Shown: positions 1,842 to 63,900 of the stretch, in pieces
Numbering within the stretch: position 1 is the stretch's first letter
How the letters are laid out: each line of letters begins with the position of its first letter
Source: Modicisalibacter tunisiensis
Lineage (GTDB): Bacteria; Pseudomonadota; Gammaproteobacteria; Pseudomonadales; Halomonadaceae
DNA: 64,000 bases
Assembly: GCF_020148005.1 (NCBI RefSeq)
Contig: NZ_JAGXFD010000001.1
Coordinates: forward strand, 1,074,729 to 1,138,728
Direction of reading: 5' to 3'
Notes under the pieces: model-generated
Told to the model about the DNA's origin: nothing
The model's database searches: none
The model's input: only the letters and a program-made list of their open reading frames with translations
Translations under genes and position numbers: made by a program

Positions 1842-2771
1842 TCACCCCTGCAGCAGATACAGGCACAGCGACAGCGTGAGCAGCGAACCGAGCGTCGTCA
1901 GCAGGATGGTGCGCGAGACCACCGCGGCCTCGCGCTGGTAGAACTCCGCCAGCATGAACGGCCCCGTGCCGGTGGGCAGGGCGCTCATCAGCAGCGCCGA
2001 CTGCGCCCAGAGCGGCGGCAGGGCGAAGACGTGGTAGGCCAGCACCCAGGTGATCAGCGGGTGGGCGACCAGCTTGAGGCCGACCAGCCCCAGGGTGCCC
2101 TGGGCCGTGCCGGGCTGGCGGCGGGCCAGGAACAGCCCCAGCGAGACCAGCGCAGCGGGGGTGGTGGCGTCGCCGAGCAGACGCAGGAAGGTGTCGGCGG
2201 CGTGGGGCAGCGACAGGCCACCGATCGCCCACAGGGCGCCGAGGATCGGCGAGACCACCAGCGGGTTGCGGGCCAGCGCCCTGCCCACCTTGAGGCCGGC
2301 GCGGGCCGCGGAGCGTTCGCTCTGCAGCCCCACCTCGATGCACACCACAGCCAGGCCGAACAGCACGCAGGCCACGAACAGCGTGGCGATCAGCGCCGGC
2401 TCCAGGCCGGGGTCGCCCAGCACCAGCAGGCTCAGCGGGATGCCCACGTAACCGGTGTTGGCGTAGGCGGCGCCCAGGGCGTCGATGCTGGCATCCACCA
2501 GATGGCGTGTCGCGCGCCGCCGGTAGACGAGGGTCAGGGCGAAGATGGCCAGTGTGCCGATGGCGACCACGGCGATGAACTCGGGGTGCCAGACCTCCGC
2601 CCAGGTCGCCGTGGCCGTGGCGCGAAACAGCAGTGCCGGCAGGCACAGCCAGACGACGAAGCGGTTGAGCTCCGAGGCGGCGGTCTCGCCCAGCCGTTCG
2701 GTGCGGCGGCACACGTAGCCCACCAGGATCAGCCCGAAGATGGGCAGGATGACATTGACGACCGACGACAT
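1842..2771 (-). CDS. AEC family (auxin efflux carrier-like) transporter
   Basis: The 309-residue protein has about ten hydrophobic segments, an N-terminal run VNVILPIFGLILVGYVCRR and the conserved AYANTGYVGIPLSLLV segment near residue 135, both typical of the AEC/malonate-type permease family. Bacterial members move small organic anions or amino acids across the inner membrane; the substrate cannot be read from the sequence. It is convergent with the hemE-VanZ pair (16 bases between stops). The upstream gap to the next gene (2772-2943) holds no further gene that I can support. Confidence 0.82.
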   Translation of the reverse strand: MSSVVNVILPIFGLILVGYVCRRTERLGETAASELNRFVVWLCLPALLFRATATATWAEVWHPEFIAVVAIGTLAIFALTLVYRRRATRHLVDASIDALGAAYANTGYVGIPLSLLVLGDPGLEPALIATLFVACVLFGLAVVCIEVGLQSERSAARAGLKVGRALARNPLVVSPILGALWAIGGLSLPHAADTFLRLLGDATTPAALVSLGLFLARRQPGTAQGTLGLVGLKLVAHPLITWVLAYHVFALPPLWAQSALLMSALPTGTGPFMLAEFYQREAAVVSRTILLTTLGSLLTLSLCLYLLQG

Positions 2772-2943
2772 TGGCGCAGCTTCCCCATCGTGTTGCGTGG
2801 CGCCACCCTGGCGGGCAGGGCGGCGCCGCCCGACGGGGCCGGTGCGGCGCGAGGTGTTCCGTCGGCTGGCAGAAAGCTTTCTAGCCTAAGGGGGTTTGCT
2901 CACGTCGTCCATGTCGGCGGGGAGAAGCGCCGCTGCGAGCGTC

Positions 2944-3396
2944 TCAGCCTCCGGCCGCCCTGGGCGAGTCATCGTCGGCGCCGTGCAGGCGTGTTTTGAG
3001 CGAGGGCTCGCGGCGGGTGACGCGGGGCTCGCCCACCGCCTCGGCCGGGGCGACCGGCGAGACGGCGTTGACCCAGCGCTGCTCGGGGTCGTGAACCGCC
3101 GGGCGGCGGTCGATCGCCCGGGTCATCACCGCACCGGGGCCGTGCGGGTCGCTCAGGCGGTGCGGCAGCATCAGCAGTTCGGCGAGCAGGCGCACACCGA
3201 CGCTGGCCAGCAGCCAGAGGCTGACGGCCATCACCCAGCTCGGCCAGCCCGCCACCCAGCCGTCCCGGCTCAGGGCCGGGGCGTGGAGCGCCAGCCAGCC
3301 CAGCGCGGTGACGAGCAGGGCCAGCTGGGCCGTGACATGACAGAGCACCAGGGTGCGTCGCGGCAGGGGGCGGCGCAGCAGCAGGAAGTCGCGCAT
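2944..3396 (-). CDS. Small two-helix membrane protein, possibly DUF4282-like
   Basis: The start is taken at the ATG at 3396 (MRDFLLLRRPLPRR) because a GGAGAG Shine-Dalgarno lies just upstream; a longer open frame reaches 3531 but its extra residues look like non-coding sequence. The 150-residue product has two hydrophobic segments (about 18-36 and 48-66), followed by ASVGVRLLAELLMLPHRL, which resembles the G-x-R-x-x-x-E-x-x-x-x-x-x-R-L signature of DUF4282 membrane proteins. The C-terminal half is hydrophilic and probably disordered. No function is known. Confidence 0.55.
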   Translation of the reverse strand: MRDFLLLRRPLPRRTLVLCHVTAQLALLVTALGWLALHAPALSRDGWVAGWPSWVMAVSLWLLASVGVRLLAELLMLPHRLSDPHGPGAVMTRAIDRRPAVHDPEQRWVNAVSPVAPAEAVGEPRVTRREPSLKTRLHGADDDSPRAAGG

Positions 3397-51735: not shown

Positions 51736-54423
51736 ATGTATTACTATCTGTACTGGGGCAAGGCCCGGCCTGACGGCGCAGGTGCGCAGTGCCACCTTCT
51801 GCCCTATCACAGTCTGGACGTGGCCGCCGTCGGGTGGTACCTGCTCGCCCCCGAGCGTCCCTTGACCCAGCGGCTGGCGGCCCGGCTCGATATGCCGCCC
51901 GAGGCGCTGCGGCGTTTCTTCGTCTTCCTGCTGGGCCTTCACGACCTCGGCAAGTTCGCTCGCGCCTTCCAGGGACTGGCCCGGCCCGAAGGTGTCGAGT
52001 TGGTACCACCGATCGAGCGACTGGTCTATACCGAACGGCATGACCGGCTGGGTGCCCTGCTGTGGCAGACGTGCTGGATCGAGTGGTGGCAGGACGGCAC
52101 TCTGGGAGGGGCTGGAGAGTTGCCACCGCGACACGAGCGTCGCCAGTTGGGTGAAACCCTGCGTGCCTTGCTGGCGCCGATGTTCGGCCATCATGGCCTG
52201 CCGGTGGAGGCTGGCCGGCTGGATCTTTCCCGGTTCTTTGGCAGCGGTGATATTGCCGATGATGTTCAGGCGGCACGACAGTTTGTTGCCGACTGGGCCG
52301 CCCTGATCGGGTTCAATTGGCCGGTCGACAAGCTGGTTGCTCCCCAGTGGCGGGAAGCCTTTCTGTCGGTGAGCTGGACGATTGCCGGCTGGGCCACCTT
52401 GAGCGACTGGCTGGGCTCCAACCGAGATCATTTCACCTACTGCCAGAATCCGATGCCGCTGGCCAAATACTGGCCCATGGCACTCGAGCGGGCCGAACGA
52501 GCGCTGGCCGAGACGGGATTTGCTCACCCTCCCGAGCCGATACCCTACGCCGGACTGGCCAGCTGGTTCGGCGGCCGGTCGGTCACACCGACTCCCCTGC
52601 AGCGGGAGGCCGAGACCCTGGTTCTCGGCGATGGTCCGCAGCTCTTCGTCCTCGAGGACGTGACCGGTGCCGGCAAGACCGAGGCAGCCTGTATCCTCGC
52701 CCAGCGTCTGCTGGCAGCGGGCCACGGCGAAGGGCTCTATTTCGCATTGCCGACCATGGCAACCTCCAACGCCATGTACGAGCGTCTCGGCCATCTGCAT
52801 TGGCATTTCTACGCCGAGGCGTCGCATCCCTCCTGCGTGCTGGCACATGGTGCCCGCGAGCTCAACGATACCTTCATGCAGGCCATCGCCGCCGAGCAGC
52901 CGGGAGATCGTGATTACGCCGCCGACGACATGACGGCCACCACGCGCTGCAACCGCTGGCTGGCCGATTCCCGCAAGAAGTCGCTGCTGGCCGATGTGGG
53001 CGTCGGCACCATCGATCAGGCACTGATGGGGCTGCTGCCGTTTCGGCACCAGTCGCTGCGCCTCTATGGCCTGGCCCGCAAGGTGCTGATCGTCGACGAG
53101 GTGCACGCCTACGACCACTACATGCAGACCCTGCTCAACCAGCTGCTGGCCCATCATGCGCGTCAGGGCGGCAGCGCCATCCTGCTGACGGCCACCATGC
53201 CGCGTGCCATGCGCGAGGCGCTGGCCGCGGCATGGCGTGAAGGGTTGGGGCAGGCACCGGCCTCGCTGCAGAACGATGCATTCCCGCTGTTGACCCAGGT
53301 TGGCGACGGTCTGGAGCGCGAGACCCCGCTGGCCACGCGCCCGGAAGTATCGCGTGAGGTCGGCATCGACTGGCTGGCATCCGAAGAACAGGCGCTCGAT
53401 GCCGTGATGGCGGCCGTCGAGGTGGGCGAGTGTGTCGCCTGGGTGCGCAATACCGTAGACGACGCTATTCGTGCCTACGAGCAACTCCGCCAACGCCATC
53501 CCGCCCCCGAGCGCTGCCTGCTGTTTCACAGTCGCTTCGCCATGCTCGACCGCCAACGTATCGAGTCGGATGTCATCGAGCGGCTGGGGAAGGCCTCCAC
53601 CCCCGACCAGCGTCATGGCCAAGTCCTTGTAAGTACTCAGGTCTTCCAGGAATCCCTCGACTGTGACGTGGACTTCATGATCAGCGACCTGGCGCCTATC
53701 GACCTGCTGATTCAGCGTGCTGGACGCCTGCAGCGCCATGTGCGCGGCCCGCGTCGCGCACCGCTGCTGTCCGTGCTGGCGCCCGAATGGAGCGATGAAC
53801 CGGATGGCCAGTGGCTGAAGCGTTCTCTGCCGGGCACTCAGGCGGTCTATCGCGACACCTCCCTGCTCTGGCTGACTCAGCGCGTGCTGCGCGAACTGGG
53901 CGCGATCCGCATGCCCGACGAGGCGCGGTCGCTGATCGAGGGCGTTTACGGCCCGGTTACTGACCTGGTGCCGGATGGCCTGCAGGAGGCGCGGTGGGAG
54001 CAGCGCGGCATGCAGGGCGTGGCCGTCTCGATGGCCAACTTCAACGCCCTGTCGCTTGAGCAGGGCTATCTTCGCCAGCCGGAAGTCGACCAGTGGCAGG
54101 AGGAGCTGGAGATCGGTACCCGGTTGGTCGACGAACCGTCGCTCAACGTCGTGCTGCTCAAGCGTTCGACCGATGGCGAACTGGCGCTGTGGGCCGAGGA
54201 CGAGCGCCACGCCGCCATGCTCAGTCAGGTCAAGCTACGCCAGAGCCAGGCGGAGAAGCTGGCGGACCTGCCGGCCGGGGACCAACTCCAGTGGGAAGCG
54301 CTTCAGGAACGCGACAAGGCGCTGCGTTTCACGCGGCCCTGGCTGGTCGAGGCCGATACCGGCTGCGGCTATGACGCCCGGTGGGGAGTGAGGTTTTCGA
54401 GGGACGGTGAAAATCCCCGCTGA
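51736..54423 (+). CDS. cas3: CRISPR-associated nuclease/helicase Cas3 (type I-E)
   Basis: Cas3 is recruited by target-bound Cascade and degrades the DNA. The 895-residue protein has an N-terminal HD nuclease domain (YHSLDVA near residue 25, LGLHDLGKFARAFQ around 66-79, GHHGLP around 152) and a DExH helicase: Walker A TGAGKTEAA near residue 313, DEVHAYD (about 455), LTATMPRAM and QRAGRLQRH (about 658). The size matches E. coli Cas3 (888). The last codons lie within a degenerate CRISPR repeat. An inverted repeat abuts the start codon. It is separated from cse1 by 327 bp. Confidence 0.96.
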   Translation: MYYYLYWGKARPDGAGAQCHLLPYHSLDVAAVGWYLLAPERPLTQRLAARLDMPPEALRRFFVFLLGLHDLGKFARAFQGLARPEGVELVPPIERLVYTERHDRLGALLWQTCWIEWWQDGTLGGAGELPPRHERRQLGETLRALLAPMFGHHGLPVEAGRLDLSRFFGSGDIADDVQAARQFVADWAALIGFNWPVDKLVAPQWREAFLSVSWTIAGWATLSDWLGSNRDHFTYCQNPMPLAKYWPMALERAERALAETGFAHPPEPIPYAGLASWFGGRSVTPTPLQREAETLVLGDGPQLFVLEDVTGAGKTEAACILAQRLLAAGHGEGLYFALPTMATSNAMYERLGHLHWHFYAEASHPSCVLAHGARELNDTFMQAIAAEQPGDRDYAADDMTATTRCNRWLADSRKKSLLADVGVGTIDQALMGLLPFRHQSLRLYGLARKVLIVDEVHAYDHYMQTLLNQLLAHHARQGGSAILLTATMPRAMREALAAAWREGLGQAPASLQNDAFPLLTQVGDGLERETPLATRPEVSREVGIDWLASEEQALDAVMAAVEVGECVAWVRNTVDDAIRAYEQLRQRHPAPERCLLFHSRFAMLDRQRIESDVIERLGKASTPDQRHGQVLVSTQVFQESLDCDVDFMISDLAPIDLLIQRAGRLQRHVRGPRRAPLLSVLAPEWSDEPDGQWLKRSLPGTQAVYRDTSLLWLTQRVLRELGAIRMPDEARSLIEGVYGPVTDLVPDGLQEARWEQRGMQGVAVSMANFNALSLEQGYLRQPEVDQWQEELEIGTRLVDEPSLNVVLLKRSTDGELALWAEDERHAAMLSQVKLRQSQAEKLADLPAGDQLQWEALQERDKALRFTRPWLVEADTGCGYDARWGVRFSRDGENPR

Positions 54424-54500
54424 TGCGGGGAACGAAGTAACGCATGAGTCTGGCGTATGAGCCAATACCGGCTTATCCCCACGTGGGTAGGGAGCGGAAC
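54405..54500 (-). ncRNA. Predicted crRNA-like regulatory RNA (CreR/CreA-type mini-array)
   Basis: Seen: on the minus strand, two degenerate repeats in inverted orientation to the main array bracket a 33-nt segment (54436-54468). The first (54469-54497) keeps 20 of 28 bases and a 6-bp stem through pair-preserving changes, and ends in ATAAGCCG (main array ATAACCCG). The second (54405-54435) keeps CCCCGC-4 nt-GCGGGG but has a spoiled handle. Known: Cas6e needs the stem, and Cascade needs the upstream handle; crRNA-like RNAs that guide Cas autorepression (CreR, CreA) show such asymmetric decay. Inferred: a mature RNA of about 62 nt, 8-nt handle plus guide plus stem-loop. It overlaps the cas3 stop in antisense. 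No strong minus-strand promoter was found. Confidence 0.75.
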
Positions 54501-54511
54501 AGATCATCTCA

Positions 54512-54556
54512 TTGCCTTGGGCTGGATGTCTAAATATATGTTTGAGCTAATACCTT
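54512..54556 (+). promoter_or_regulatory. Predicted Cascade-operon promoter overlapped by the crRNA-like RNA target
   Basis: Promoter: TTGCCT (54512-54517), 17 bases, TATATG (54535-54540). Target: on the minus strand AAG (54556-54554) is followed by GTATTAGCTCAAAC, against guide GTATTGGCTCATAC. Positions 1-5, 7-11 and 13-14 match; only 6 and 12 differ, the positions flipped out in I-E R-loops. Positions beyond 14 do not match, so binding without Cas3 cutting is expected. The 32-bp protospacer (54522-54553) covers the -10 and predicted start site. Confidence 0.7.
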
Positions 54557-54619
54557 ATTGATTGATGCTGAGCCTGAAGCTACCCTTTGGCTGCCATTTG
54601 CTGATGAGGAGGTGCGTTC

Positions 54620-54751
54620 GTGCGGGGCTGGCTTGAGGAAGCGTTATGGAAGATTGCCGAATGGGACTGGGTGAGTATCGCCGTGAAGGCTGTCTGTTTC
54701 TCTATCCCGCGAGTGATTCTTGGCCTCATCAAAAGAGGGGGAAAGAGGTAA
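54620..54751 (+). CDS. 43-aa tryptophan-rich peptide coupled to cse1
   Basis: A GTG at 54620 is preceded 7 bases upstream by a near-perfect Shine-Dalgarno (GAGGAGG) and opens 43 codons whose stop TAA shares one base with the cse1 ATG (TAATG). The peptide begins MRGWLEEALWKIAEWDWVS, then has a hydrophobic stretch (IAVKAVCFSIPRVILGLI) and a basic end (KRGGKR). It uses AGA, AGG and TTA, rare codons in this genome. It would be the first gene of the Cascade transcript, under the predicted crRNA-like control. It could be a leader peptide, a small membrane-active toxin or a small Cas accessory. I do not recognise a family. Confidence 0.5.
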   Translation: MRGWLEEALWKIAEWDWVSIAVKAVCFSIPRVILGLIKRGGKR

Positions 54752-56409
54752 TGAACCTGCTCAATGACCCTTGGCTGCCTTTCCGTACCAGGGACGGTGC
54801 CATCGACTACCGGCCGCCCAGCGCGGTGGCTGATCCCGAGATCGTCGATCTCGCCCTGCCGCGGGCCGATTTCCAGGGTGCCGCCTACCAGTTCCTGATC
54901 GGCCTGCTGCAGACCGCGCTGCCGCCGCAGGATCACGGCGACTGGCTGGACCGCTTTCTCGAGCCTCCCAGCGTCGCCGATCTAGAGGCCGCCTTCGCGC
55001 CTTTCAGCGATGCCTTCGAGCTGGACGGTGACGGGCCGCGCTTCATGCAGGATCTCGATCCGCTCGAAGGCACTGACTCAAGCTCCGTGAGTGGGTTGTT
55101 GATCGACTCTCCAGCAACCCACTTTGTGAAACCAGGTACGGTAGATGCCCTTTGCGGGAAATGCTCAGCATTGGCTTTATTCAATATCCAGGCCAATGCC
55201 CCATCCGGGGGGCGTGGTCATCGGGTGGGGTTGAGGGGTGGTGGGCCTTTAACCACGCTGGTTATGCCTGATCACCCCGAGGAAAAGCTATGGGTTAGGC
55301 TGTGGATGAATGTGACAGTCAGCCAAAAAATAATCCGGCCTGGCCAGGCTTGGAAAAAGCCAAGTTCTGACAATGCTGACCTGTTTTTTTGGATGGGACC
55401 CACCCGGGTCAGTGAGAATAAGGGCTCGGAAATTTTCCCCGAGAATACGCATCCGTTACATCCCTTCTGGTCCATGCCGAGACGCTTCCGACTGATCTTT
55501 GAAGCGGAAGGCCGCTATTGCGACATATGTGGGGAAATGGAAAGCCGCACCGTGCGTCGGATCAAGTCTAAAAACTATGGGGCTAACTATGACGGGCCCT
55601 GGCTTCACCCGCTGACGCCCTACCGGCGCGACCCCAAGAAACCCAACGAACCGCCGTTGTCCATCAAGGGGCAGCCCGACGGCCTGGGCTATCAGCACTG
55701 GTCGAATCTGGTGCTGCACGATGCCGACGGCAGCGGCGCGCTGCCTGCATTGGTGGTGCAGGACTATGTATCCGAAAAGGTGCGGATTGTTGACGAGGAG
55801 CGTCGTTTCGGGGAGGAAATCGCCGCGCTACCCAAGCATGTGCGGCTTTGGGTCTTCGGTTATGACCTGGAGAAAATGAAGCCGCGCGGCTGGTACAACG
55901 TCGAGATGCCGCTGGTCGCGGTGCCTCCCGCCCAGCAGGAGCGGCTGCGCGCCTGGGTTCAGCAGCTCACCGACCTGGCTCGGCAGGTCGCCTGGAGGGT
56001 ACGCACCCAGGTCAAGAATGCCTGGTTCGATCGGCCTTCCGAAGCCAAGGGCGATATGAGCCATATCGATCTCGCGTTCTATGACGCGACTCAAGGTGCC
56101 TTCTTTCATGCCCTGCGGAACTTCCAGGAAATCTTGTCAGCCGCTGACGATGCCTCGGACCTGCCTTCCGAGGTGGCCGAGCGATGGTATCTCACGCTCA
56201 AGCGCGAGGGCATGGCGCTATTCGAGGAGCAGGCCCTGAGCGGCGCCCTGGAAGCGGCAGACCTGAAGCGCGCAACCGCGGCGCGACGCCAGCTGCAAGG
56301 CTTCCTGGCCGGGCGCAGCAAGGACAGCAAGGTCATTCGTCAATTTGCCGAGATAGGTGGATTTTCATTAACCGCCGAGCCGGCAGCTACCGAGGAGACC
56401 GTGTCGTGA
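54751..56409 (+). CDS. casA: Cascade large subunit Cse1/Cas8e
   Basis: Cas8e recognises the PAM and recruits Cas3. The 552-residue protein begins MNLLNDPWLPFRTRDGAIDY, as the family does, and has FNIQANAPSGGRGHRVGLRG then GGPLTTLV (about 150-175), the loop region linked to PAM and target contact. It is about 50 residues longer than E. coli CasA. A CDICGEME element near residue 264 may bind a metal. The start is the ATG at 54751 with GAGG upstream; a longer frame to 54646 adds an unrelated N-terminus and would overlap the 43-aa ORF. Confidence 0.95.
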   Translation: MNLLNDPWLPFRTRDGAIDYRPPSAVADPEIVDLALPRADFQGAAYQFLIGLLQTALPPQDHGDWLDRFLEPPSVADLEAAFAPFSDAFELDGDGPRFMQDLDPLEGTDSSSVSGLLIDSPATHFVKPGTVDALCGKCSALALFNIQANAPSGGRGHRVGLRGGGPLTTLVMPDHPEEKLWVRLWMNVTVSQKIIRPGQAWKKPSSDNADLFFWMGPTRVSENKGSEIFPENTHPLHPFWSMPRRFRLIFEAEGRYCDICGEMESRTVRRIKSKNYGANYDGPWLHPLTPYRRDPKKPNEPPLSIKGQPDGLGYQHWSNLVLHDADGSGALPALVVQDYVSEKVRIVDEERRFGEEIAALPKHVRLWVFGYDLEKMKPRGWYNVEMPLVAVPPAQQERLRAWVQQLTDLARQVAWRVRTQVKNAWFDRPSEAKGDMSHIDLAFYDATQGAFFHALRNFQEILSAADDASDLPSEVAERWYLTLKREGMALFEEQALSGALEAADLKRATAARRQLQGFLAGRSKDSKVIRQFAEIGGFSLTAEPAATEETVS

Positions 56410-57062
56410 GTGAAATGCAACTCGCACCCACAGCAGAGGCACCGCCGCGCGTGCCCGAGTGGCTGCATGCCATCGAGCGCAGGGAGGCTGATGTTCTACG
56501 GCGTTGGTGGCAGCGGCTGACGCTGCCGGCAGAAACGCTGAAAACCCATACCGATGCGCCGCCCTGGCCCAAGGGCCTACGGGCGACGCTGCGTCGCTGC
56601 GACACCATCGAAGCGGCGATGCTGACGGAGGCGTTTCGCCATCTATGGCAGCAGTTGCCGGATGAGGGGGGTGAGCCCGAGTGGCGGCGCAATCAGCGGC
56701 TTCAGGCCTGGTCCTGTATCGCCCTGGTGGTGGCAGAACTTCGCGAGGATGCGCCCAGAATGCCCTTGGGAGCCGCTCTCGGCCAACAGAAGCGCGAGAC
56801 TGGCAAGCCGTTCATGAGCGAACTGCGCTTTCAGCAGCTGATGACCTCGCGCACTCCGGAGGAGCTGGTGCAGCGTCTGCGCCGGGCCTTGGCGCTGATC
56901 GACAAGCGTGGCGTCAGCGCCGTCCACCTGGCCGACAACATCGCGCTGTGGTGGCGTGAATATCAGGGCGATGTCGCACCCAAGCCTACCAGGCGTCTGG
57001 GCTTTATCTGGGCCAACGACTACTTCGGCGCCACGACCGCCTATCGACAAGACAACCAGTGA
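56406..57062 (+). CDS. casB: Cascade small subunit Cse2
   Basis: Two copies of Cse2 run along the Cascade belly and stabilise the R-loop. The 218-residue helical protein starts at GTG 56406, overlapping the cse1 stop by 4 bases (GTGA); an in-frame ATG follows at 56415. Typical features are LRRWWQRLTLPAE (about 30-42), LRRCDTIEAAMLTEAFRHLW (about 60-79) and DNIALWWREYQGD near the C-terminus. It is somewhat longer than E. coli CasB (160) but similar to other family members. Confidence 0.9.
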   Translation: MSEMQLAPTAEAPPRVPEWLHAIERREADVLRRWWQRLTLPAETLKTHTDAPPWPKGLRATLRRCDTIEAAMLTEAFRHLWQQLPDEGGEPEWRRNQRLQAWSCIALVVAELREDAPRMPLGAALGQQKRETGKPFMSELRFQQLMTSRTPEELVQRLRRALALIDKRGVSAVHLADNIALWWREYQGDVAPKPTRRLGFIWANDYFGATTAYRQDNQ

Positions 57063-57091
57063 TTCGTCAACCACGTCAGGGAGCCAACCCC

Positions 57092-58165
57092 ATGAGCCAT
57101 TTCATCCAACTGCACCTGCTGACTGCCTACCCGCCGGCCAACCTCAATCGCGATGACCTGGGACGACCCAAGACTGCAATCATGGGCGGTGCCAAGCGCC
57201 TGCGTGTCTCGTCGCAGAGCTTGAAGCGGACCTGGCGGACATCGGCGCTGTTCGAGGAGGCCGTGGGCCAGCATCGTGGCATGCGCACCAAGCTGGTGGG
57301 CGTCCAGGCCGCCAAGCGCCTGCAGGAAAAAGACGTGAAAGAGAAGGATGCCCGCGCCTGGGCCACAGAGATCGCCAAGGTCTTCGGCGATGTGGCCAAG
57401 GGCGAGCTGGAAACCAGTCAGCTGGTCCATGTCGGCCCCGAGGAGCAGGCGGCGGTCGACGCCCTGGTCGAGACGCTGGCTGCGGAGAACCGCGCGCCGG
57501 AGAAGGAAGACCTGAATCTGCTGCGGCACAAGCCCTCGGCCGTGGATATCGCACTGTTCGGCCGCATGCTGGCGGCGTCGCCGGCCTTCAATGTCGAGGC
57601 TGCCTGTCAGGTCGCCCATGCCATTACCGTGCATGCCGCCGAGGTCGAGGACGACTATTTCACGGCGGTGGATGATCTGAACACCGGCGACGAGCATCGC
57701 GGGGCGGCGCATGTCGGCGAGGCCGGTTTCGGTGCGGGCCTGTTCTACAGCTACGTGTGCATCGACCGCCGGCAGCTGATCGAAAACCTGGGCGGCGAAG
57801 AGGAACTGGCCGACCGGGCCATCGCGGCCCTGGCCGAGGCCGCCGTGAAGACCTCGCCCAAGGGCAAGCAGAACAGCTTCGGTTCCCGGGCCCATGCCAG
57901 CTATGTGCTCGCCGAAAAGGGTGATCAGCAGCCGCGCTCGCTGGCGCCGGCTTTCCTGCGCCCCGTGGCCGGTCAGGATCAGGCGCTGGATGCCATCGGC
58001 CGGCTGGAGCGCCAGGCTCAGGCCTTCGATGATGCCTATGGGGCCGGCGCCGAGCAGCGTTTCGTCGTGGCGGCCGATCCCGACTATCGGGAACCGCAGC
58101 TGTCCGGTGGCGTGCTCAAGGGCAGTCTTGCCGAGCTGATTGACTTTCTCAATCGGGATCACTGA
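57092..58165 (+). CDS. cas7e: Cascade backbone subunit Cas7e (Cse4/CasC)
   Basis: Six Cas7e copies coat the crRNA guide; their thumbs flip out every sixth base, which is why guide positions 6, 12 and so on are not read. The 357-residue protein starts FIQLHLLTAYPPANLNRDDL and has MGGAKRLRVSSQSLKRTWRT (about 31-50) and HVGEAGFGAGLFYSYVCIDR (about 208-227), as in the family (363 in E. coli). ATG 57092 has AGGGAG 8 bases upstream; the longer frame from 57059 is not preferred. Confidence 0.95.
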   Translation: MSHFIQLHLLTAYPPANLNRDDLGRPKTAIMGGAKRLRVSSQSLKRTWRTSALFEEAVGQHRGMRTKLVGVQAAKRLQEKDVKEKDARAWATEIAKVFGDVAKGELETSQLVHVGPEEQAAVDALVETLAAENRAPEKEDLNLLRHKPSAVDIALFGRMLAASPAFNVEAACQVAHAITVHAAEVEDDYFTAVDDLNTGDEHRGAAHVGEAGFGAGLFYSYVCIDRRQLIENLGGEEELADRAIAALAEAAVKTSPKGKQNSFGSRAHASYVLAEKGDQQPRSLAPAFLRPVAGQDQALDAIGRLERQAQAFDDAYGAGAEQRFVVAADPDYREPQLSGGVLKGSLAELIDFLNRDH

Positions 58166-58175
58166 AGGAGTCGTC

Positions 58176-58931
58176 ATGACGGAGTATCTGGTCTTTCGAC
58201 TCTATGCGCCGCTCGCCAGTTGGGGCGAGGCGGCCGTGGGCGAGTCGCGCCCCACCGCCACCTATCCCGGACGCAGTGCCATTGTCGGATTGCTCGGCGC
58301 GGCGCTGGGCGTGCGCCGGGATGATGACGAGGGGCAGCGTCGGCTGCGCGATAGCATCGGCATCGCCATCAAGCAGCGCTCCCCCGGCATCCTGCTGCGC
58401 GATTACCACACCGTGCAGGTGCCGGCATCGCAGTCCAGGGTGACCTATCGCACTCGACGGGACGAGTTGAGCGCCCCGAAGAAAGTCATCAATACCATTC
58501 TTTCCAGCCGTGACTATCGCTGCGACGGGCTGTGGACCGTCGCCGTCTGGCTGACACCACAGGCCGAGTTGACGCTCGAGGCGTTGGAACAGGCGCTCAA
58601 GGCGCCGCACTTCCCGCTCTATCTGGGACGCAAGGCCTGTCCGCCGGGGGCACCGCTCGCACCGCGGCGCGAGGCGTTTTCTCGGCTACGCGATGCCTTG
58701 GATGTCGACTTTACGCCGCTGTGCGGGAGAAACGCCGAAGAGGAGCGCCGCGCGTTGCGGCTGCCGGATAACGCGCTCTATGCCTGGGAAGGCGATGCCA
58801 GGGACCTGGATGGCAATGGCCAGGGTGTGGAGTCCAGTGAGTCCTGGGATATGCCGCTCAATCGCCGCCGCTGGCAGTTCGGACCGCGTACCGAATATCG
58901 CCGCGTGGTCCGGGCACGGGAGGAGCACTGA
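58176..58931 (+). CDS. cas5e: Cascade subunit Cas5e
   Basis: Cas5e holds the 5' handle of the crRNA. The 251-residue RAMP protein begins EYLVFRLYAPLASWGEAAVG, has the ATYPGRSAIVGLLGAALGV segment (about 31-49) and YLGRKACPPGAPL (about 149-161), all characteristic of CasD. ATG 58176 follows GAAGGAG. The stop shares a base with the cas6e start (TGATG). It must accept the slightly altered handle ATAACCCG of this array. Confidence 0.93.
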   Translation: MTEYLVFRLYAPLASWGEAAVGESRPTATYPGRSAIVGLLGAALGVRRDDDEGQRRLRDSIGIAIKQRSPGILLRDYHTVQVPASQSRVTYRTRRDELSAPKKVINTILSSRDYRCDGLWTVAVWLTPQAELTLEALEQALKAPHFPLYLGRKACPPGAPLAPRREAFSRLRDALDVDFTPLCGRNAEEERRALRLPDNALYAWEGDARDLDGNGQGVESSESWDMPLNRRRWQFGPRTEYRRVVRAREEH

Positions 58932-59623
58932 TGTACCTTTCTCGAGTGCGAGTCGACCTCAACGGCCTGTCCCGAGGGGCCTTGTTCGACATCATGGATG
59001 GCAGGGCCTATGCCGCCCACCAATTGCTGTGGCGACTGTTCCCTGAATATCAGGGACCTCGGCCATTCCTGTTTCGTCAGGAAATGGAGGAATCCGAAGA
59101 CGGAGGCGCGCCGCGGGGGTTGCCGCTGTTCTATGTGCTCTCCGAGCGAGAGCCGGTGCCGATTGCCGGGCTGCTGGAGGCACAGTGCAAGCCGTTTTCC
59201 CCGGTGCTGGAACCCGGGGAGCGGCTTGCCTTTCGCCTGCGGGCGAATCCTACAGTGGCCAAGTCAGTATCAGGCAAGCGGGGACAGCGTGCCGACGTGC
59301 TGATGGCCGCCAAGTATCCCTTCGAGGCCGGCGGCCAGAGGAAAAGCCAGGCCTGTGTCGAGGCGATGGATGCGGCCGCTCGCGAGTGGCTGACAGAGCG
59401 TGCCGAGTCCTGGGGATTCCGTTTACCGATGTCGCCTGAAGTGGGGGCCTATCGTCAGCATGCGTTATCGAAGGACAAGGGCCGCCCCATCCGGTTTTCC
59501 AGCGTCGACTATGAAGGCCTGCTGGAGGTCACGGATTCCGGCCGGTTGATCGAGACTCTGGCGCAGGGTGTCGGACGAGCCAAGGCCTTTGGCTGTGGCC
59601 TGATGCTGTTGCGTCGTCCCTGA
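58931..59623 (+). CDS. cas6e: crRNA endonuclease Cas6e (Cse3/CasE)
   Basis: Cas6e cuts pre-crRNA at the 3' foot of each repeat hairpin and stays bound to it. The 230-residue double-ferredoxin protein has the candidate catalytic His31 (RAYAAHQLLWRLF), FRLRANPTVAKSV (about 101-113) and the C-terminal Gly-rich loop GVGRAKAFGCGLMLL (about 213-227). It starts at the ATG overlapping the cas5e stop. It should also cut the crRNA-like RNA at 54405-54500, whose stems are conserved. Confidence 0.93.
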   Translation: MYLSRVRVDLNGLSRGALFDIMDGRAYAAHQLLWRLFPEYQGPRPFLFRQEMEESEDGGAPRGLPLFYVLSEREPVPIAGLLEAQCKPFSPVLEPGERLAFRLRANPTVAKSVSGKRGQRADVLMAAKYPFEAGGQRKSQACVEAMDAAAREWLTERAESWGFRLPMSPEVGAYRQHALSKDKGRPIRFSSVDYEGLLEVTDSGRLIETLAQGVGRAKAFGCGLMLLRRP

Positions 59624-59647: not shown

Positions 59648-60866
<1,219 letters not shown>

Positions 60867-60972
60867 TTTTTAAGGCTCTTTAACAATGCAGTCTGGTCAA
60901 AAAGTGATCAAAATCGCTGGTGGAAACCCCGCTGGTGATTTTCTTCATTATAAACAAGTGGCTACAATTAGT
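60867..60972 (+). promoter_or_regulatory. CRISPR leader
   Basis: The 106-bp stretch between cas2 and the first repeat is AT-rich (for example tcattataaacaagtggctacaatt, quoted here only for its composition: CATTATAAAC and TACAATT) against a very GC-rich setting. TATAAA near 60950 and TACAAT near 60964 are candidate promoter elements. New spacers should be added at this end. No clear IHF site was identified. Confidence 0.7.
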
Positions 60973-63900
60973 CCGATCCCCGCAGGCGCGGGGATAACCC
61001 GTTCGTGTTCCACGCGTTGCTGCTGCTGTTCTCCCGATCCCCGCAGGCGCGGGGATAACCCGCTGAGCCTGGCGGGGCGGCTTCAGGACGAGTGCCCGAT
61101 CCCCGCAGGCGCGGGGATAACCCGGTCGCCCCGGTCTCGATGGCCAGCTGACGGCGCCCGATCCCCGCAGGCGCGGGGATAACCCGATCCACCGGCCGTG
61201 GGGCATCCAGGGCGGCGACCGATCCCCGCAGGCGCGGGGATAACCCGAACACGGCATGTGTCATGCCGTGGTCCGATGCCCGATCCCCGCAGGCGCGGGG
61301 ATAACCCGCACTGCCGCTGCTGCCGTGATCGTTACAGGCCCCGATCCCCGCAGGCGCGGGGATAACCCGGAATTGACCGATCAAGCCCACACTGCCGGTG
61401 TCCGATCCCCGCAGGCGCGGGGATAACCCGGACATCAGCGAGGCCTATCGTCGCGGCGACATCCGATCCCCGCAGGCGCGGGGATAACCCGTTCCTGTCC
61501 TCAATTACGCCTGCTGCACGTATCCGATCCCCGCAGGCGCGGGGATAACCCGCTCATCGCGCTCGGCGCGGGTCGCGTCGCGAACCGATCCCCGCAGGCG
61601 CGGGGATAACCCGGATCTGCCGCGGGGCGCCCAGGTCAACGTCATCCGATCCCCGCAGGCGCGGGGATAACCCGGGTGACCCAGGAACGTACCAGGACCC
61701 CGGTCACCGATCCCCGCAGGCGCGGGGATAACCCGGCTGGGCAGTTCTTCCAACTCCGTATTGGATCCCGATCCCCGCAGGCGCGGGGATAACCCGCAGG
61801 TGCTCGACGACATCGCGCAGCAGCAGCGCCGATCCCCGCAGGCGCGGGGATAACCCGGAGACCGCCACCATGATCAACCACTACCAGGACCCGATCCCCG
61901 CAGGCGCGGGGATAACCCGAACTACTGCTGCAGCCTACGAGAAAGATCGGTCCGATCCCCGCAGGCGCGGGGATAACCCGCGCATGAAGACCTCGGCGCC
62001 GCGCATGGAGAACCGATCCCCGCAGGCGCGGGGATAACCCGCCCGACGGCACATTCGTGTCGCGTTCCTGCGGCCGATCCCCGCAGGCGCGGGGATAACC
62101 CGATCAAGAAGTGCTTGCGGCTGGCGCAGTCGAGCCGATCCCCGCAGGCGCGGGGATAACCCGACCCGGCGCTTTGGCCGGGTCGTGGTGGATGCCCGAT
62201 CCCCGCAGGCGCGGGGATAACCCGTCCCAGACGATCTGCTCCCAGGTGGTCAGCGGCCGATCCCCGCAGGCGCGGGGATAACCCGATGCTGGCGACGTTG
62301 AAGCCGGCGCCGCGCGCCCGATCCCCGCAGGCGCGGGGATAACCCGGCCGTGTCGATGCAATTCCTGGTCTGCCTCGGCCGATCCCCGCAGGCGCGGGGA
62401 TAACCCGGTCGGCGCCTTCCCCGAGCTGACCACCAGGGCCCGATCCCCGCAGGCGCGGGGATAACCCGGGGCCATCGGCAAACATCCCGCGCGTATGCTC
62501 CCGATCCCCGCAGGCGCGGGGATAACCCGCACCGCCGCGGCGTCGAAATAGACCGACCGCCCCGATCCCCGCAGGCGCGGGGATAACCCGCATCCCGGCC
62601 GCTGGCTGGGCACCGGCAACCGCCGATCCCCGCAGGCGCGGGGATAACCCGCCCGCAAACCCCCTCGACTTGGCCATCGTGCCCCGATCCCCGCAGGCGC
62701 GGGGATAACCCCCGCGCGAGCTGGTGGCGGTGGTGCGCACGGTCCCGATCCCCGCAGGCGCGGGGATAACCCGGACGCCGCCTTGATCGACCTGCGCAAC
62801 CGCTACCGATCCCCGCAGGCGCGGGGATAACCCGCGACATGCAAGGCGCCCAATGACGTCGCTCAGCCGATCCCCGCAGGCGCGGGGATAACCCGACGAG
62901 CGGCATGCACCCCGAGGACCTGATCATCCGATCCCCGCAGGCGCGGGGATAACCCGCCGATCCCTGTCATGAGGGCGGAGACCACGACCCGATCCCCGCA
63001 GGCGCGGGGATAACCCGGCGTCGCGTCCCGGTTTCATCACCACCGCCCACCGATCCCCGCAGGCGCGGGGATAACCCGTTTCTTCACGGTGCCGAGGTGC
63101 TGGAGATCGACCGATCCCCGCAGGCGCGGGGATAACCCGCCCAGCGCCGAGCCCGCGAGTACGTCGACGAGCCGATCCCCGCAGGCGCGGGGATAACCCG
63201 CCCAGGTCCTCCAGGGGCGGCACCGGCGTGTACCGATCCCCGCAGGCGCGGGGATAACCCGGCCGAAAAGGACACGAAAACCGGCTCTCATTACCGATCC
63301 CCGCAGGCGCGGGGATAACCCGTTGACCCCGCGGCTGACCGGGGCGATGGTCCACCGATCCCCGCAGGCGCGGGGATAACCCGATCGTCCTCGCCGGCAG
63401 CGGCGACAACGCCAACCGATCCCCGCAGGCGCGGGGATAACCCGCGCCGACGTTCCTTGGCCTCCAGCCGGGCGAGCCGATCCCCGCAGGCGCGGGGATA
63501 ACCCGCGCACCCGCCGGCTGACGCTGATCGCCAACCGCCGATCCCCGCAGGCGCGGGGATAACCCCGCACGGGCAGCCTTGGCAGCATCCTTGATCGCCC
63601 GATCCCCGCAGGCGCGGGGATAACCCGTCCACATACCAGCGCGTCGCCAAGCACCGCGCCCGATCCCCGCAGGCGCGGGGATAACCCGCCGAGAGCGCCC
63701 GGGCGGCTGAAGCGAATGCCCCGATCCCCGCAGGCGCGGGGATAACCCGTCGTCGCGGATTTCCGGGAGCTTGGCGCCGACCCGATCCCCGCAGGCGCGG
63801 GGATAACCCGTCGACCAGGTCGAACCGGTTGGCCAGGTCGTCCCGATCCCCGCAGGCGCGGGGATAACCCGCGGATGATGTCATTGCCGTGTTCTGTCAG

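What the first reader, a model, noticed from the sequence alone, without database searches (positions are those of the whole stretch)
54405..54556. A crRNA-like RNA between cas3 and cse1 that should guide Cascade to its own promoter
Seen: two degenerate CRISPR repeats in inverted orientation around a 33-nt segment. The guide begins GTATTGGCTCATAC; 53 bp beyond the mini-array a site reads GTATTAGCTCAAAC directly after AAG on the same strand. Mismatches in the first 14 bases fall only at 6 and 12. Known: Cascade I-E ignores every sixth base, E. coli I-E uses AAG, and partial seed pairing permits binding without interference; crRNA-like regulators (CreR, CreA) are described for several Cas types. 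Inferred: autorepression of the Cascade operon that senses free Cascade and would be relieved when Cascade is filled by crRNAs or blocked by an anti-CRISPR.
Basis: partly seen in the sequence, partly recalled or inferred. Interest (0 to 1): 0.96.

Follow-up and report, generated by a model that had tools for sequence, protein, structure and literature searches.

The report
Cascade-guiding RNA that represses cas genes
Between two CRISPR genes this bacterium carries a tiny two-repeat mini-array whose guide matches a site at the presumed promoter of its own CRISPR operon, and dozens of related bacteria keep guide and target matched although the sequence itself changes, so it is very probably a self-control switch of a kind already known.

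Summary
A minus-strand mini-array (two degenerate I-E repeats, 33-nt spacer) sits between cas3 and cas8e. Its guide matches an AAG-flanked site beside the presumed cas8e promoter at positions 1-5 and 7-11, a match found once in the 3.55-Mb genome.

In 49 loci, largely from Gammaproteobacteria searches, guides differ widely yet match their own targets. Positions 6, 12 and 18 match only at chance; 13-17 match above chance. This is the footprint of Cascade, not of antisense RNA. Detection succeeded in 48 of 64 loci with a cas3-cas8e gap of 120 nt or more, against 0 of 77 with smaller gaps.

The kind is known: CreR autorepression is reported for type I-E (PMC13131331), and a CreTA-like module with a translated toxin ORF for the same slot in Citrobacter rodentium (PMC12055562).

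Not seen in the papers I could read: spacers of two lengths only, about 20 and about 32 nt; a 43-codon ORF overlapping the cas8e start; an apparent copy in E. coli K-12. RNA, Cascade binding and repression remain untested.

The parts
54415..54476 (-). predicted mature crRNA-like RNA (62 nt): 5' handle ATAAGCCG, 33-nt guide, 3' hairpin
   Evidence: sequence; cut positions inferred from E. coli Cas6e chemistry (recalled); fold
54469..54497 (-). degenerate repeat R1, stem CCCTAC-CCAC-GTGGGG + handle ATAAGCCG
   Evidence: 21/29 identical to array repeat
54436..54468 (-). guide (spacer), 33 nt, GTATTGGCTCATACGCC...
54407..54435 (-). degenerate repeat R2, overlapping the 3' end and stop codon of cas3
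   Evidence: 19/29 identical to array repeat
54522..54556 (-). target: PAM AAG (54556-54554) + protospacer; matched core 54553-54540 (1-5, 7-11, 13-14)
   Evidence: found once in the genome
54503..54532 (-). promoter-like site TAGACA-18-GATGAT that could transcribe the mini-array; its -35 lies inside the target
   Evidence: 1 site found, shuffles 0.3; the weight-matrix scan preferred another site here (TCAATA-17-TATATT, -10 ending 64 nt before the guide)
54558..54586 (+). weak promoter-like site TTGATT-17-TACCCT starting 4 nt past the first base of the PAM; presumed promoter of small ORF + cas8e
   Evidence: matrix score 8.4; not reported by the consensus scan; inferred
54620..54751 (+). 43-codon ORF (GTG start, AGGAGG 54607-54612), WDW motif, basic tail; stop overlaps the cas8e ATG (TAATG)
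51736..54423 (+). cas3 (Cas3e)
54751..56409 (+). cas8e (cse1), first Cascade gene, presumed regulated gene
56184..59623 (+). cas11e (cse2), cas7e, cas5e, cas6e
59648..60866 (+). cas1, cas2
60972..63900 (+). canonical CRISPR array, repeat CCGATCCCCGCAGGCGCGGGGATAACCCG, period mostly 61 (end approximate)

Best explanation
A type I-E cas-regulating RNA of the CreR kind. The minus-strand mini-array is transcribed from its own promoter, cut by Cas6e and loaded into Cascade. That Cascade recognises AAG at 54556-54554 and forms a short R-loop through the seed. It blocks the promoter that drives a 43-codon ORF plus cas8e-cas11-cas7-cas5-cas6e, and probably also the -35 of the mini-array's own promoter. 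The match is too short (12 of the first 14) for Cas3 to be licensed. Cascade thus limits its own synthesis; the block should lift when crRNAs fill Cascade or an anti-CRISPR disables it. Shown: the anatomy, the covariation with hexad footprint, the single occurrence in the genome, and co-occurrence with the gap. Inferred: both promoters, transcription, processing, binding, repression, de-repression.
For: Repeat-only (target-blind) detection. Host family: 25 of 43 loci with a gap of 60 nt or more have the repeat pair, and 24 of 25 have an AAG/AAA target with at least 8 of 10 read positions; the 25th (L040) had R1 misplaced, and the same locus in its named record (L157) gives 9/10 with AAG. Order and class: 22 of 52 loci have a candidate, 18 of 22 with a target of 8 or more; of 18 distinct candidates with summed score 26 or more, 16 have 9 or more. 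Named genomes: 8 of 8 loci not already seen that have a repeat pair have 9 or more with AAG. Swap control: own gap 8 or more with AAG in 37 of 40 (the other 3 have AAA); other loci's gaps 39 of 1560, of which 33 are between guides of the same similarity group; between groups 6 of 1454, none above 8. Changes matched on both sides in like guides, e.g. window against L005 at 1, 4, 9 and 10. Position profile over 49 loci: positions 6, 12 and 18 at composition chance (11, 12, 13 against 10.8, 10.7, 14.2), 13-17 above it (43, 35, 31, 28, 24 against 16.7, 13.9, 13.8, 12.9, 13.0); none of these was used to select. Mini-array promoter -10 ends 29-43 nt before the guide in 32 of 49 (shuffled 7.0; range chosen); cas8e-side -10 starts 20-29 nt past the PAM in 14 of 47 (shuffled 2.3). 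In 12 loci cas8e starts 15-79 nt past the target and no ORF of 25 codons or more lies between, leaving cas8e as the next gene.
Against: No RNA, ChIP or reporter data exist here for this genome. The window's own promoters are weak: the plus-strand site is not in the consensus scan, and for the minus strand the window is not among the 32 of 49 (its best matrix site ends 64 nt before the guide). Many I-E loci do without the element: 0 of 77 loci with a gap under 120 nt have it (the 14 family loci with gaps under 60 nt were scanned only, also none). Of 20 stretches upstream of cas3 (19 from relatives lacking it in the gap) 18 had no candidate, one held a true array and one a low-scoring candidate without target (strict criteria). 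Of 16 gap loci without it, 5 were rescued by a looser search, 7 carry DUF29 instead and 4 stay without. Read positions 8 and 9 match in only 44 and 40 of 49. The 49 loci include close relatives, and no tree was built.
Confidence: 0.85

Rival explanations
1. CreTA with a peptide toxin: the guide's selected job is to keep the small ORF 54620-54751 silent; loss or inhibition of Cascade releases a toxic peptide, making Cascade addictive or killing anti-CRISPR-infected cells. Repression of cas8e is a by-product of sharing the transcript.
For: In Citrobacter rodentium I-E the cas3/casA gap holds a crRNA-like element on the opposite strand, a target by the promoter and a 96-bp ORF that is toxic only when translated (PMC12055562, section 13). 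Here the ORF sits in the same slot. The WDW family hits 12 of 275 family genomes, and 8 of the 12 hits lie just upstream of cas8e, three of these with E above 0.001 (positions as). Other kinds of small ORF (FRRY..LDAxxYGxxAWPI; short membrane-type) occupy the slot in other loci.
Against: 12 mini-array loci have the target 15-79 nt from the cas8e ATG and no ORF of 25 codons or more between. The ORF overlaps the cas8e start, so the two should share a transcript. No toxicity was tested; no Pfam or NCBIfam match above cut-off.
Confidence: 0.3
2. Antisense RNA: the minus transcript pairs with the 5' UTR of the cas8e mRNA instead of guiding Cascade.
For: Guide and target are complementary once the plus strand is transcribed across the target (sequence).
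Against: Free positions 6, 12 and 18 are not expected of RNA-RNA pairing; AAG/AAA stands beside the match in 46/3 of 49, though most scans required it. In 14 of 47 loci the best plus-strand promoter lies 20-29 nt past the PAM, so the target would not be transcribed. In L054 and L095 the target is on the other strand.
Confidence: 0.03
3. A decayed CRISPR array, its spacer a fossil with a chance seed match.
For: Repeats are degenerate (21/29 and 19/29).
Against: Changes matched on both sides in like guides; own gaps 37 of 40 against 6 of 1454 between groups; 0 of 20000 resamples.
Confidence: 0.02
4. A self-targeting or priming spacer that drives adaptation from the own locus.
For: Partial matches with a good PAM can prime in type I-E (recalled).
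Against: Conserved placement and repeated re-matching of guide and target point to regulation; a primed self-target would be costly. Not tested.
Confidence: 0.03

Closest known systems
CreR (cas-regulating RNA; Liu et al. 2023, Cell Host Microbe; not held, nothing read)
   Same: crRNA-like RNA with partial match to the cas promoter; said to mediate autorepression in I-B, I-E and V-A (PMC13131331 passages) and to sense crRNA abundance and anti-CRISPRs (PMC12737573 passages)
   Different: Whether the original covers this lineage, spacer-length classes or the small ORF could not be checked. Function is not tested here.
CreTA-like module of Citrobacter rodentium type I-E (PMC12055562; passages, section 13 read)
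   Same: same gap (cas3/casA), guide on the opposite strand, PAM-flanked target by the promoter, small translated ORF downstream
   Different: PAM ATG there, AAG here; the ORF here overlaps the cas8e start; toxicity here unknown; its sequence was not fetched or compared
Haloarchaeal CreTA (I-B; PMC8501985 passages)
   Same: match at 1-5 and 7-11, with 6 and 12 shown to be irrelevant by mutation; degenerate repeats
   Different: I-B, TTC PAM, RNA toxin
crRNA-like elements of Shmakov et al. 2023 (NAR)
   Same: mini-arrays with partial match to cas promoters, cas8 among them (content recalled; paper not held; seen only as a reference)
   Different: could not be compared in detail

Membership tests
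CreR | two degenerate repeats flanking one spacer, inside the cas locus | tested here: met
CreR | limited seed complementarity, with correct PAM, upstream of cas genes | tested here: met
CreR | the matched site is the cas promoter | tested here: inconclusive
   promoter predicted only, weak in the window; position enriched across loci
CreR | guide and target coevolve (my own criterion) | tested here: met
CreR | Cas6-processed, Cascade-bound RNA | not testable with these tools
   needs small-RNA sequencing and pull-down
CreR | represses cas genes; relieved by crRNA abundance or anti-CRISPR | not testable with these tools
   needs reporter strains
CreTA | toxin gene under the CreA-targeted promoter | tested here: inconclusive
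   a small ORF kept in some relatives is there; toxicity not tested
Racr (RNA anti-CRISPR) | solitary repeat unit in a viral or other mobile element (PMC10651486 passages) | tested here: not met
   two repeats, in the cas locus itself

The most novel reading that the evidence does not exclude
One guide does two jobs: it holds down a single transcript that carries both an accessory small protein, probably a toxin or Cascade-loss alarm, and the Cascade genes. Loss of Cascade would raise both cas expression and the alarm, making CreR and CreTA one device. The slot is filled by unrelated small proteins. The guides come in two discrete sizes, about 20 and about 32 nt, so that a natural Cascade two Cas7 units short serves only for regulation. 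The same device, not described in the papers I could read, sits in E. coli K-12 between cas3 and casA.
Probability: 0.3. Interest if true: 0.86.

Novelty: new member of a known kind. Interest (0 to 1): 0.62.

Why it matters
It turns a single-genome guess into a testable, widely distributed I-E regulator with natural covariation as evidence, and shows Cascade's six-base register written into evolution at positions 6, 12 and 18. It points to a natural use of shortened crRNAs in type I-E and to a small-protein slot that may hold Cascade-controlled toxins. An apparent copy in E. coli K-12 would let the best-studied I-E system answer it quickly.

Tried and rejected
Rfam scan of the gap: five weak matches, none reaching its gathering score. 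Simple promoter scan: one minus-strand site, no plus-strand site. Mini-array moved upstream of cas3 in relatives without it: 20 stretches taken, 18 without a candidate, L129 a true array, L132 one low-scoring candidate without target. First R2 detector allowed only 26-39 nt spacing and missed the short-spacer class; replaced. Pfam and NCBIfam for eight small ORFs: two weak hits, none above cut-off; plasmid tblastn of one FRRY-type peptide: no match. Position 6 being mismatched on purpose: rejected, it matches at chance (11 of 49, expected 10.8). R1 stem as covariation evidence: own arms pair at 6 of 6 in 25 of 49, but swapped arms also pair at 4.08 of 6 on average and detection required pairing, so it is not used. 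Codon-position counts support coding for the FRRY family (third-position changes dominate) but are weak for the WDW family among close relatives.

Literature: searches. None of the listings or passages I saw described two spacer-length classes, the WDW ORF or an E. coli K-12 copy; the two key papers (Liu 2023, Shmakov 2023) are not held, so absence from print is not claimed.
Full report
What is there. The window is a type I-E cas locus: cas3 51736-54423, a gap, cas8e 54751-56409, cas11e, cas7e, cas5e, cas6e, cas1, cas2 and an array of period mostly 61. Cse1 is confirmed by Pfam. The host genome is 3.55 Mb in 8 contigs; many of its family-level relatives turned out to be identical, at a 120-base probe, to named Halomonas and related records. 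In the gap, on the minus strand, two degenerate repeats flank a 33-nt spacer; R2 overlaps the end of cas3. The target AAG-GTATTAGCTCAAAC lies 85 nt from the guide start on the same strand. It occurs once in the genome and was not produced by local composition in 20000 resamples.

Is it maintained? Repeat-only detection was followed by a search for AAG/AAA sites in the same gap. In the family 24 of 25 mini-arrays had such a target with at least 8 of 10 read positions. In order and class 18 of 22 candidates had 8 or more, and 16 of 18 distinct high-scoring ones 9 or more; L068 and L080 did not. In named genomes it was 8 of 8 not already seen. One locus (L092) entered only through an earlier scan that required a target. 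Guides scored 8 or more with AAG in their own gap in 37 of 40 cases, the other three having AAA; in other loci's gaps in 39 of 1560, 33 of them within a group of similar guides; between groups 6 of 1454, none above 8. Grouping guides at 7 of 10 gives 20 groups among 40 loci; within groups most differences are matched on both sides, for example window against L005 at 1, 4, 9 and 10. Some sites fail, for example position 9 of L016, 8 of L041 and L042, 10 of L043.

The footprint. Over 49 loci, matches by position are 48, 48, 49, 49, 49 (1-5), 11 (6), 49, 44, 40, 48, 47 (7-11), 12 (12), 43, 35, 31, 28, 24 (13-17), 13 (18), then near chance. Positions 1-5 and 7-11 helped to select the loci; 6 and 12 onward did not. 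Chance from composition is 10.8 at 6, 10.7 at 12 and 14.2 at 18. PAM: AAG 46, AAA 3, a selection criterion in most scans. The 49 are not independent, since several are close relatives. The 1-5/7-11 rule with 6 and 12 free was shown by mutation for haloarchaeal CreA (PMC8501985, passages); here it is seen as natural variation in type I-E.

Spacer length. R1-to-R2 spacing falls into two classes: 19 (2), 20 (21), 21 (4), 22 (2) and 32 (16), 33 (4); none from 23 to 31. The gap of 12 is two six-base Cas7 units. Shortened guides give repression without cleavage in a type I-B system (PMC10551041, passages); I-E Cascade with spacers 6 or 12 nt shorter keeps reduced cleavage (PMC7296934, passages). The short class may be a further safeguard; this is inference. 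The window belongs to the long class.

Where it sits. Among 141 loci with cas3 located, gaps of at least 120 nt have the element in 48 of 64 and smaller gaps in 0 of 77 (the 14 shortest family gaps scanned, none). A looser search found a guide-target pair with 10/10 and AAG in five of the 16 others (L073, L079 on the plus strand, L189, L190, L199). Seven of the remainder carry a DUF29 gene in the gap (L020 by Pfam, E 1.3e-47; all seven by tblastn); five mini-array loci carry it as well (L018, L024, L031, L033, L038). Four remain without (L072, L080, L099, L100).

Promoters. The window is not among the 32: its best matrix site ends 64 nt before the guide, while the consensus scan found TAGACA-18-GATGAT nearer. 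On the plus strand the -10 begins 20-29 nt past the PAM in 14 of 47 (shuffled 2.3), which puts the -35 at the PAM; 8 have it 0-9 nt past (3.4), 8 lie 41-60 nt before (5.7, no real excess); the rest are scattered. The window fits the first class (TTGATT-17-TACCCT) with a weak score. The target also covers TAGACA, so the guide may limit itself.

The small ORF. Between target and cas8e lies a 43-codon ORF, 54620-54751, with AGGAGG and a TAATG overlap with cas8e. Its family (WDW motif) matched 12 of 275 family genomes; 8 hits, including the window, lie just upstream of cas8e; the other 4 do not and are marginal (positions compared). Two other types of small ORF fill the slot elsewhere. In C. rodentium I-E this slot holds a translated toxin repressed by Cascade. 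In 12 mini-array loci no ORF of 25 codons fits. I therefore read cas autorepression as the common function and the ORF as cargo, possibly toxic.

E. coli K-12. The cas3-casA gap of MG1655 holds, opposite to casA, a hairpin with the handle ATAAACCG, a guide TTATTGGTCTTATTATCG and an AAG site matching 9 of 10 read positions and, apart from 6 and 9, on to 16. The second repeat is degenerate and was judged by eye. The gap is AT-rich and other guide-like pairs reached 8 of 10 in the same scan, so the seed match alone is weak evidence; no swap or shuffle control was made. 1126 of 5426 E. coli genomes have a similar gap, 1104 over at least 80%. In two variants the guide changes fall at 12 and 28 and the target change at 17, outside the seed. 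An antisense promoter in this gap is known (recalled).

Verdict. A genuine I-E guide of the CreR kind. The class is reported (PMC13131331 passage), so this is a new member; the length classes, the ORF slot and the E. coli copy are what a specialist may not expect.

Noticed in passing
L225 (E. coli K-12 MG1655) 2640-3053, cas3-casA gap: apparent mini-array with AAG-flanked 9/10 target, and a 39-codon ORF (VNVIIELITPYFFF...) whose stop overlaps the casA start
   Followed up: partly
window 54620-54751: 43-codon ORF with WDW motif, overlapping the cas8e start
   Followed up: partly
L020 981-1502 (-); also L017, L025-L028, L032 and, beside mini-arrays, L018, L024, L031, L033, L038: DUF29 gene (Pfam E 1.3e-47) on the minus strand in the cas3-cas8e gap of 12 family loci, 7 of which lack the mini-array
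   Followed up: partly
L018 (863-nt gap): two candidate AAG target sites, 99 and 126 nt from the guide, both 8/10
   Followed up: no
L053 and L034, 84- and 93-nt gaps: R2-like remnant without R1: perhaps deletion between guide and target copies (by eye)
   Followed up: no
L054, L095, L079: flipped arrangements: target on the other strand (L054, L095) or mini-array on the plus strand (L079)
   Followed up: no
L228 (E. coli strain 1506) 1651-2348: IS1 transposase annotated where casA would begin, between cas3 and casB
   Followed up: no
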